A DNA stretch of 64,000 nt, taken from Chrysoperla carnea. Taxonomy: Eukaryota; Arthropoda; Insecta; Neuroptera; Chrysopidae. The notes beneath the pieces are model-generated. The model saw nothing but the letters and a program-made list of their open reading frames with translations, searched no databases and had not been told where the DNA came from. The stretch is from assembly GCF_905475395.1 (NCBI RefSeq), contig NC_058340.1:62598181-62662180 (forward strand). The letters are read 5' to 3'. Made by a program: the position numbers and the translations under genes. Positions within the stretch are counted from its first letter, which is position 1; every line of letters starts with the position of its first letter. This document shows positions 49,301 to 52,300 of this stretch, piece after piece.

Positions 49301-52300
49301 GTTTAATTTCTTATCTACACTCCTAGATGCGGATTTTTACAAAATGATCCTACGTTTCGTTTGGAAACGGATAATCCATATTTGTCCGGCTTTCATAAAT
49401 TTATTGAAACTTAAAAAATTACTCCACAATTTATAAAAATTAGATGATAAAGTTTTGTAATATCATGGCAGGATATTGTAATTAAAACTAAATATTTTCA
49501 AAAAAATATAAACGGCTATTTAAAAACTAGAACATTGAATTAATACAGGCATGAAGTTGTTTAGAATATTTTTTTATACCCATATATCTACCGATTTTCA
49601 TGACAAAATTTGCATTTTTAATTTTTGCATTATTTTGGTCTTTACTCAAATTTATTACAAGTTTATTGAAATAATTAAATACATAACACTATTATTATCA
49701 ATTTGTCCAGTTTTTACATTCCATAGCAAACTCATTATAAAATTAAAAAAAAACTTTTAACAACAAGAAAACCGACTTCAAAAGAAAAATTTTTCCAAAA
49801 CAAATAATATGCACTAAAAAGTAAAAAAATAACGATATTATGATGTAGCTAAAATTATTGTTATTTTTGGAGTCGGTGTCAGCCAAGGAAACAGCTCTGA
49901 CGGAACAGTTTGCTACATTAGCTTGACTGACACCGACTCCAAAAATAACAATAAGTTTAACTACATCATAATATCGTTATTTTTTTACTTTTTAGTGCAT
50001 ATTATTTGTTTTGGAAAAATTTTTCTTTTGAAGTCGGTTTTCTTTTTGTTAAAAGTTTTTTTTATTTTGTGATGTTGAGTGAATCTGAAGTACATTAACT
50101 AATTTGTCACTAAAAAAAGAAACATTGAAATCGGTTGGTGTGATTTTGAGGTATCCGTCCTCTTGTCGTGCAAACTTAGTGCAAATTAAAACTTTTGTGT
50201 TTTTTTCATGGGATGCCGTTGTCTAAACTGAACCAAAATGAAATGGGACCACTCGGGAAGCACCAGCTTTCAAATAAAGAATATAGATAAAGAATCATCA
50301 AAATCGATTCACCCAGTCAAAAGTTATGAGGTAACAAACATAAAAAAAAAATACAGTCGAATTGATAACCTCCTCCGTTTTTGTTTGAAGTCGGTTAAAA
50401 ATAAATTTTTATAACTAATGTGCTATAATGTTAAAACTGGACAAATTGATAATAATAGTGTTATGTATTCAATTATTTCAATAAACTTGTAATAAATTTG
50501 AGTCAAGACCAAAATAATGCAAAAATTAAAAATGCGAATTTTGTCACAAAAATAGGTATAAAAGCATATTCTATGAAACTATTTCTAATAGTTTTTTTTT
50601 ATATCTCTAACCGTCTTGGACGCTTTGCAAAATAATTTCAAAAATTGTTCGAAGACTTTATACCTTCAATGCATAAAACTAAACTCCACGTATATTCTGG
50701 ATCATTATTTCGTTCTATTCGGCGATGTTGCTATAAATAATTTTCATTTAAATATTCAGTAGTTATCTGACATCAAACGTTTTATAATTCATGCAATGCA
50801 ATTTTAGCAATCGAATGCGATATTTAATACACAAGCCGGTTTTGTAATTAATTTTTTGGATCCAATAAATGAATATTTTAAATGTATTGCAAAATTTGGA
50901 GAATACGATGATTCACAACGTTATTACGTGCAAATTTTACGTATGTCCGGATTTATTTAATTCTTTTTACAAATTTATAATTTTAAAATACTAATTTTGA
51001 TATTCTAAAATAGATTTTAATCCTTTTAATTTAAATAAAATTATGACGATACTTACGATACCATATTCAAGAAACGTTGGGAAGGGAAATTAGAATGGCT
51101 TTCATTCATCCTTTAACTTTGAAAATTCTCAGTCTGCGGAGACATTTTAAGCACTGATAATTTTTCAATAATTGTTAATCTTTATACATGGTGCTTTTGG
51201 AAATAATAACTGATTTTGTATTTAGCCAAGAAAAAATAACTTTTACAAAAGTTGTAGAGTTTGATGGGGGACATCATGCTATGGCATTAGATTGGACCTA
51301 GTTCCCCCGGGATATGTAGAGTTTGGAGGTCACGCCAAACGGCTCAATATTTTTATAGGCTACTATTATTCTCTCTTAATATGTTCAATTATCTTGCATT
51401 CAAGAAAAAAGCAAATGATTGTTCATATTTTTTCAATAGGCCATTTTATTGACATGACAATGAAGCCACTCACGAAATTTCGTAAGGGTGTTATTCACGA
51501 AACCATACCCTCTCTACTATTTTTAGCCACTCATAATGAAATAAAATATTTTTGATTAAATATCTTCAGTAAAATAATTTTATTTATAATTAAAAGGTAA
51601 TCCAAATATTATTACCAGGTGACAAACGAGATAAATTATGACCCCAAAGTTGGTATTACATTATATTTAAATGGAACTGCAGCAGGCGGTAGATATACTT
51701 GTATTGGTTCGAACAATTTTAAAACAGAGGAACTCATTATTCCAATGACATATAAGCGATTACGTAATTATTTTCATTATCAAATTTCATTCAAGTTACT
51801 TATTTTGATGTAATAATATGTTGAATGTCTTATTTCTTTACTTAGTCGGTTAACATTTTTGGTAGTTTAAAACTAGCGTACATTTTTTGATCTTATTTGC
51901 CAAAAATTTACATAGACGTGATCTTTAGGTATCAACAAGTTCTCAGTAAAGACAGGGTTGGGATGAGAACTTGGCTAAAGAAAATCTAGGTTTATGGCTA
52001 TCATTTCGACTACCGGATAACTGTAGTGTGTATCAAGCCGAAGTGATAGCTATTTATGAGGTATGTGAATGTATAACACTGAATGATCTCATGTGTAGCG
52101 ACATTATATTTTCACCAATAGCCAAGCAGCGCTAAAATCCTTCAAAATCCTTCAGCCCAGTCTACCTTACCTCAAAGGTAACACTGGACTGTTGAATACT
52201 TGGACACAAGGACATTCCGGAAAATTGTGAAGCCACCGAGCTTGCAGGGATTGGCCCAATGCTGCCAGACACAAGTACCAATAGGCATCCGGGAGTTCCA

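What the first reader, a model, noticed from the sequence alone, without database searches (positions are those of the whole stretch)
50808..51763. Mutually exclusive exon pair swapping half of Pvr Ig domain 2
Two exons 678 bases apart both encode the strands that carry the second cysteine of Ig2 (YFKCIA versus RYTCIG). Both accept phase 0, both leave phase 1, and both end TTAC before GT so the next codon becomes Pro either way. Using both shifts the frame; using neither leaves Ig2 without its second cysteine. This explains an otherwise awkward extra half-domain. In VEGF receptors Ig2 and Ig3 bind the ligand, so the choice could retune ligand preference. The two proteins are clearly diverged, so both versions appear long maintained. 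I do not recall whether other insects share this pair.
Basis: partly seen in the sequence, partly recalled or inferred. Interest (0 to 1): 0.85.

Follow-up and report, generated by a model that had tools for sequence, protein, structure and literature searches.

The report
Swappable half of insect VEGF-type receptor
In a green lacewing, a VEGF/PDGF-type growth-factor receptor gene appears to carry two interchangeable exons for half of its likely ligand-binding domain, only one of which can be used at a time, much as FGF receptors switch ligands, though no RNA evidence was available to prove it.

Summary
The window lies on chromosome 4 of Chrysoperla carnea (assembly statistics match PMC10116181), in a PVR/VEGFR-type receptor gene with two tandem paralogues downstream. 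In detail: exon 3 (48800-48927) gives the first half of Ig2; exons 4a (50808-50940) and 4b (51619-51763) each supply the second half, with equal phases and their own splice sites. Either keeps the frame; both or neither gives an early stop. 4b matches the single exon 4 of paralogue 2 (56%). 4a does not resemble 4b detectably but is homologous to the same half-domain: 0 of 1561 candidate exons from 20 Mb of simulated intron match paralogue 3's exon 4 as well, and exon 3+4a extends a Pfam VEGFR-1-like Ig match that 7 of 7 control fusions do not. New point: 4b and all three paralogue exons carry an N-glycosylation sequon before the second cysteine; 4a does not. Best reading: a mutually exclusive pair, built like FGFR IIIb/IIIc but in Ig2 of a PVR. 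Unproven: transcripts, regulation, ligand effect. The focused RNA-pairing test was at chance. Conservation in other insects could not be tested.

The parts
48000..48303 (+). Coding part of the exon with Ig1 (called exon 2 here; its 5' end was not fixed); donor after 48303
   Evidence: Open frame with NLTLIC...YVCEY; donor AAG|GTAAGA
48800..48927 (+). Exon 3, first half of Ig2 with its first cysteine ([10 protein letters not shown]); leaves in phase 0
   Evidence: paralogue counterparts at 41-50% identity; Pfam PF21339 15.3 bits, below the 27-bit cut-off
50808..50940 (+). Exon 4a, alternative second half of Ig2 (GFVI...YFKCIA...YYVQIL), no N-glycosylation sequon
   Evidence: Phases; the stretch 50600-51000 found only at its own place in the genome; homology tests; sequon scan
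51619..51763 (+). Exon 4b, alternative second half of Ig2 (GITLYLNGT...RYTCIG), one NGT sequon
   Evidence: Phases; 56% identity to exon 4 of tandem paralogue 2, E 4.7e-12; sequon scan
54814..55137 (+). Exon 5, Ig3; accepts phase 1
   Evidence: 42% identity to paralogue 2 exon 5
50941..51618 (+). Intron between 4a and 4b (678 nt), with a repeat fragment at about 51311-51515
59856..62148 (+). Kinase-coding stretch of the same gene (several exons; nearest solved kinases for the first exon are VEGFR-1 and VEGFR-2)

Best explanation
Exons 4a and 4b are a mutually exclusive pair in a PVR/VEGFR-type receptor gene of Chrysoperla carnea. The common exon 3 gives the first half of Ig2; splicing to 4a or 4b adds the half around the second cysteine, so every full-length receptor has one complete Ig2 of one of two kinds. 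Exclusivity is enforced at least by frame: both exons or neither gives an early stop, so such RNAs would be degraded or encode a truncated Ig1-Ig2 protein. The halves differ in the stretch before the second cysteine; 4b has an N-glycan site there, as its paralogues do, and 4a does not. Most likely the choice changes binding to the lacewing's Pvf-type ligands, as IIIb/IIIc does for FGFs. Shown from sequence: exon ends, phases, frame consequences, homology, one exon 4 found in each of three paralogues. Inferred: that both are spliced, how the choice is made, and the effect on ligands.
For: Phases and frame outcomes. 4b is the paralogue-conserved exon. Ig2 identity. Exon 3+4a matches Pfam PF21339 at 18.2 bits to profile position 69; exon 3 alone 15.3 bits to 28; 7 of 7 control fusions 13.3-14.6 bits to 29-30. 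4a against paralogue 3 exon 4: 0 of 500 shuffles and 0 of 1561 simulated exons as good; against the C2 gene's exon 4 and against PDGFR-beta: 1 of 500 and 1 of 1561 each. Codon composition of 4a in the top 2.3% and of 4b in the top 4.9% of 1239 overlapping stop-free intronic windows. 4a was found only at its own place. 4b's donor (GTAATT) is weaker than that of paralogue 2 (GTAAGT), as might be expected of a regulated exon.
Against: No transcript evidence. No counterpart of 4a was found in the paralogues. No significant direct similarity to 4b (129 of 500 shuffles; 316 of 1561) and little to paralogue 2 (20 of 500; 37 of 1561). Profile support for 4a alone is weak, and MAFFT misplaces its cysteine. 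Exon 3+4a PDB hits have E 0.19-0.85 only, and its Pfam score is under the cut-off. No other insect could be examined, so selection on 4a is untested. The focused RNA-pairing test was at chance.
Confidence: 0.77

Rival explanations
1. 4a is a relic: an old duplicate or lost alternative exon that is no longer spliced, while 4b is constitutive.
For: Only a 4b-position exon 4 was found in each of the three paralogues; 4a is diverged and lacks the sequon shared by the other four lacewing exons.
Against: Open frame, phases, both splice sites, and the Y-x-C and GF-x-I motifs are intact despite great divergence; a neutral exon that old should have stops or frameshifts. Codon composition is coding-like. 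4a's donor and acceptor score no worse than 4b's (rough matrix).
Confidence: 0.1
2. 4a serves a truncated, secreted Ig1-Ig2 decoy: 4a is followed by 4b (frameshift) or by its retained intron, giving a soluble ligand trap, and the full receptor always uses 4b.
For: 4a+4b stops after seven further residues; reading on from 4a into its intron stops after six (sequence). The genome has a separate gene with Ig1 and Ig2 but no Ig3 or kinase match in the 40 kb fetched. Vertebrate VEGFRs make soluble forms by splicing (PMC7720527, passages).
Against: 4a ends in phase 1 with a usable donor and joins exon 5 in frame, which a decoy exon would not need. A 4a+4b message would be expected to be removed by nonsense-mediated decay.
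Confidence: 0.08
3. 4a is a chance open reading frame with splice-like ends.
For: Splice consensus in AT-rich introns is loose; about 0.45 phase-compatible open candidates are expected per 5.6 kb by chance (959 in 12 Mb), and one non-Ig candidate is present at 51956-52064.
Against: Similarity to the Ig2 half, Pfam extension against controls, codon composition.
Confidence: 0.04

Closest known systems
FGFR1-3 exons IIIb/IIIc (chordates)
   Same: Receptor tyrosine kinase; common first part of an Ig domain, two alternative second parts, one used at a time; changes ligand affinity. Seen: PMC5703972, 12 of 18 passages and section 12 whole; PMC7720527, 12 of 21 passages.
   Different: Other receptor family (PVR/VEGFR) and other domain (Ig2, not Ig3); the IIIb/IIIc duplication is described as chordate-specific; use and regulation are shown there, only predicted here.
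[quoted passage not shown]
   Same: Alternative Ig-domain exons in an insect receptor tyrosine kinase (PMC5703972, Fig. 7 legend).
   Different: FGFR Ig3, exon IIIa; here PVR Ig2, second half.
Insect Dscam1 exon 4 and exon 6 clusters
   Same: Mutually exclusive exons that encode half of Ig2 and half of Ig3 (PMC8042237, 4 passages).
   Different: Large clusters with docking-selector RNA pairing in a cell-adhesion molecule; here two exons, and no pairing above chance in the focused test.
Drosophila Pvr (DmVEGFR)
   Same: Same receptor family. I recall, without having seen it here, that Heino 2001 reported two Drosophila proteins made by alternative splicing.
   Different: I could not establish which part differs in the fly; I saw only the paper's entry in a reference list and did not try to open it.

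Membership tests
PVR / VEGFR-PDGFR type receptor tyrosine kinase | Kinase domain nearest to VEGFR/PDGFR/KIT kinases | tested here: met
   First kinase exon against the PDB: VEGFR-1 first (7.8e-33), then VEGFR-2, KIT and others; 60 of 577 matches shown
PVR / VEGFR-PDGFR type receptor tyrosine kinase | Ig2 resembles domain 2 of VEGFR/PDGFR | tested here: met
   Profile of five Ig2 versions: PDGFR-alpha 1.1e-7, VEGFR-1 4.6e-7, PDGFR-beta 1.2e-6, with titin, hemolin and other Ig proteins interleaved; 60 of 110 shown
PVR / VEGFR-PDGFR type receptor tyrosine kinase | Seven extracellular Ig domains and one transmembrane helix | tested here: inconclusive
   Pieces of about seven Ig domains and a hydrophobic stretch read by eye from open frames; no full gene model was built
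Mutually exclusive exon pair | Neighbouring exons, similar length, same phases | tested here: met
   133 and 145 nt, phase 0 in, phase 1 out
Mutually exclusive exon pair | Sequence homology of the two exons | tested here: inconclusive
   Direct 4a-4b alignment not significant (129 of 500 shuffles); each significantly similar to paralogue 3 exon 4 (0 of 500 each)
Mutually exclusive exon pair | Both or neither is unproductive | tested here: met
   Early stop in either case
Mutually exclusive exon pair | Transcripts with one or the other, never both | not testable with these tools
RNA-pairing (docking/selector) controlled exons, Dscam type | Intronic pairing beyond chance next to the alternative exons | tested here: inconclusive
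   In 2 of 12 comparisons 0 of 25 shuffles were as stable; the focused test across the 4a-4b intron was at chance, 354 of 1000. One genome only, so conserved pairing could not be sought
FGFR IIIb/IIIc | FGFR gene, Ig3 | tested here: not met
   This is a PVR/VEGFR-type receptor and Ig2; it may work like it, it is not a member

The most novel reading that the evidence does not exclude
An insect PVR has independently evolved an FGFR-IIIb/IIIc-like switch in the ligand-binding Ig2: two old half-domains, one with and one without a glycan site in the likely contact region, let one receptor gene read different Pvf ligands in different cells, on top of duplication into three tandem receptors and a separate two-Ig, possibly membrane-anchored decoy.
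Probability: 0.35. Interest if true: 0.75.

Novelty: new variant of a known kind. Interest (0 to 1): 0.58.

Why it matters
Swapping part of an Ig domain by exon choice is a proven way to change growth-factor specificity in FGFRs, and that FGFR region has been called a hotspot for recurrent alternative splicing across Bilateria (PMC5703972). The same architecture in Ig2 of a VEGF/PDGF-type receptor would show that the trick arose again in another receptor family, at the domain that binds VEGF in vertebrates (established knowledge, recalled), and would give an insect system in which to test ligand discrimination. It also yields an exact test: five junctions, one RNA-seq experiment.

Tried and rejected
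RNA pairing as the exclusion mechanism: 12 duplex comparisons; in the two that beat 25 of 25 shuffles both partners lie in the 4a-4b intron, but the focused test there was at chance (duplex 354 of 1000, end-to-end pairing 43 of 100). A first, larger version timed out with no output. Steric exclusion: thought unlikely, 678 nt lie between the exons. U2/U12 incompatibility: rejected by eye, all ends are GT-AG and no donor looks U12-type. A processed copy that would show a spliced isoform: none among the matches of the exon-spanning searches, which were the receptor loci exon by exon plus one weak other hit each. 4a as a transposon piece: 50600-51000 matched only itself. A 4a-like exon in the paralogues: none seen. 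My first splice scoring used a matrix recalled from memory that scored accepted exons badly; I replaced it with loose rules, which miss paralogue 3's own exon 4 (donor GTTAGT). The motif count GF-x-I...Y-x-C (4 of 959) was chosen after seeing 4a and is not used as a test. The seven control fusions were six of the seven non-Ig Y-x-C candidates (one overlapping variant left out) plus the candidate at 51956. In one search the exon 2/exon 3 border was set one base late on both sides (EG instead of ED); it does not touch the frame of 4a or 4b, and one search uses 48800. Literature: nine of the ten counted searches were aimed at this question and related splicing, one at the genome paper. I opened ten papers, passages only except for one whole section. 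I saw no report of a PVR Ig2 exon pair in those listings and passages; this is not proof of absence, since most subscription papers are not held, and one paper on Drosophila exon pairs was not held. Structure prediction was not used: the rule admits proteins that the DNA gives letter for letter, which I took to exclude a spliced Ig2.

Full report
Where it is. The window is part of contig C4 (77,476,099 bases) of a 559-Mb genome in 337 contigs. Scaffold number and the sizes of chromosomes 1, 2, 4 and 5 agree with the published Chrysoperla carnea assembly inChrCarn1.1; the paper's chromosome 3 and X are 0.29 and 0.06 Mb longer than C3 and C6 (PMC10116181, passages; contig lengths). I take the species as identified. 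The gene is a PVR/VEGFR-type receptor: its first kinase exon is nearest to VEGFR-1 and VEGFR-2 kinases, and pieces of about seven Ig domains can be read by eye. Two more receptor genes of the same kind follow in tandem: Ig exons and two kinase exons each, 80-82% and 59-64% identical to the window's. A fourth gene, on C2 near 55.50 Mb, has Ig1 and Ig2 exons but no kinase match and no Ig3 match in the 40 kb fetched.

The observation. Exon 3 (48800-48927) encodes the first half of Ig2, with its first cysteine. Two exons follow before exon 5 (54814-55137, Ig3): 4a at 50808-50940 and 4b at 51619-51763. Both have AG/GT ends, enter in phase 0 and leave in phase 1. Joining 4a or 4b gives an open frame through exon 5; joining both stops after seven residues in 4b; joining neither stops after ten residues in exon 5.

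Is each exon real? 4b is easy: the tandem paralogue 2 has an exon 4 that is 56% identical (E 4.7e-12), and paralogue 3 and the C2 gene have one each. 4a needed more work. No counterpart was found in the paralogues. A profile of 4b plus the three paralogue exons scores it at only 4.5 bits, E 8.1 among 5260 real six-frame fragments, and MAFFT does not place its cysteine in register. It does not align significantly to 4b (129 of 500 shuffles as good) and only weakly to paralogue 2 (20 of 500); it does to paralogue 3's exon 4 (0 of 500) and, less strongly, to the C2 gene's exon 4 and to the matching stretch of PDGFR-beta (1 of 500 each). Against 1561 phase-compatible open exon candidates from 20 Mb of simulated intron, 0 reach 4a's score to paralogue 3, 1 each to the C2 gene and to PDGFR-beta, 37 to paralogue 2 and 316 to 4b. 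Against 959 candidates from 12 Mb, 5 reach 4a's score on a profile built without it from lacewing and vertebrate sequences, 10 on the lacewing-only profile, 25 on the vertebrate-only profile. Joined to exon 3, 4a extends the match to Pfam PF21339 (VEGFR-1-like Ig) to profile position 69 at 18.2 bits; exon 3 alone gives 15.3 bits ending at 28, exon 3+4b gives 14.1 ending at 30 but matches Ig_2 and Ig_3 (19.0 and 17.8 bits), and seven of seven control fusions give 13.3-14.6 bits ending at 29-30. All these Pfam scores lie below the curated cut-offs. In the PDB, exon 3+4a finds six sequences, all PDGFR-beta or VEGFR-1, but only at E 0.19-0.85; 4a alone finds three unrelated ones. Codon composition puts 4a in the top 2.3% and 4b in the top 4.9% of 1239 overlapping stop-free intronic windows. 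The stretch 50600-51000 matched only itself in the genome.

What the swap changes. The profile of all five Ig2 versions hits domain 2 of PDGFR-alpha, VEGFR-1, PDGFR-beta, CSF1R and VEGFR-2, among other Ig proteins. In vertebrate VEGFRs this domain carries much of the VEGF contact (established knowledge, recalled). Between the conserved Gly and the second cysteine, 4b and the exons of paralogues 2, 3 and the C2 gene (4 of 4) have an N-x-S/T sequon, as have the VEGFR-1 and PDGFR-alpha fragments; 4a and the PDGFR-beta fragment have none. By recalled VEGFR-1 numbering, contact residues Tyr199 and Leu204 fall in this stretch; aligned by eye back from the cysteine, Leu204 corresponds to Tyr in 4a and Arg in 4b. 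This last point is inference, not a computed result.

Age. 4a and 4b are about equally similar to paralogue 3's exon 4 (scores 44.5 and 51.0) while not detectably similar to each other, whereas 4b and paralogue 2 are close (116). So 4a is not a recent copy of 4b. Either the pair predates some of the receptor duplications and one member was lost elsewhere, or 4a evolved fast. One genome cannot decide.

How exclusion works. Frame loss is enough to make wrong messages unproductive. Spacing makes a steric block unlikely; splice-site type gives no incompatibility. Of 12 intron pairing comparisons two beat all 25 shuffles, but the focused test on that intron was at chance. The 4b donor, GTAATT, is weaker than paralogue 2's GTAAGT, which would fit a regulated choice; no regulator can be named.

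Known relatives. FGFR IIIb/IIIc is the same design in another receptor and domain (PMC5703972, passages and section 12; PMC7720527, passages). The legend of Fig. 7 in PMC5703972 also names an insect-specific exclusive event at FGFR exon IIIa, and the text calls the region a hotspot. Dscam1 exons 4 and 6 swap half-Ig domains (PMC8042237, passages). A crustacean survey lists several PVR isoforms; the 12 of 44 passages I saw do not describe an Ig2 exon swap (PMC11024359). I recall that Drosophila Pvr was reported to have two splice forms (Heino 2001, not seen); if they differ at Ig2, this finding is a new member of a known case rather than a new variant.

Verdict. Observation confirmed; interpretation supported on sequence grounds; transcripts, conservation and ligand effect open.

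Noticed in passing
G000 C2, about 55499250-55502018 (L039): A fourth receptor-like gene with Ig1 and Ig2 exons, then an exon (55501798-55502018) giving a Ser/Thr-rich tail with a hydrophobic C-terminus; no kinase or Ig3 match in the 40 kb fetched. It looks like a two-Ig, possibly GPI-anchored decoy for PVR ligands.
   Followed up: partly
G000 C4, about 62665000-62692000 (L009-L012), downstream of the window: Two further PVR/VEGFR-type receptor genes in tandem with the window's gene, both with kinase exons, each with one exon 4 found.
   Followed up: partly
window 49589-50558: Nested inverted repeats (132-nt arms at 95%, 142-nt arms at 97%) in the intron before 4a, like a foldback element.
   Followed up: partly
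window 53618-53960: Inverted repeat with adjoining 65-nt and 39-nt arms, 100% complementary, in the intron before exon 5, perhaps a young insertion.
   Followed up: no
window 36717-40677: Retroelement-like stretch with an open frame of 1120 residues (37315-40677) that by eye looks like LINE endonuclease and reverse transcriptase.
   Followed up: no
window 51311-51515: Repeat fragment inside the 4a-4b intron; the search listed 76 other matches at 75-94% identity, with only 40 of 2488 candidates scored.
   Followed up: partly
G000, genome-wide: TTAGG arrays: 458 exact matches to a 25-base pattern against 2 for the reversed control; the hundred listed all lie within C1.
   Followed up: no
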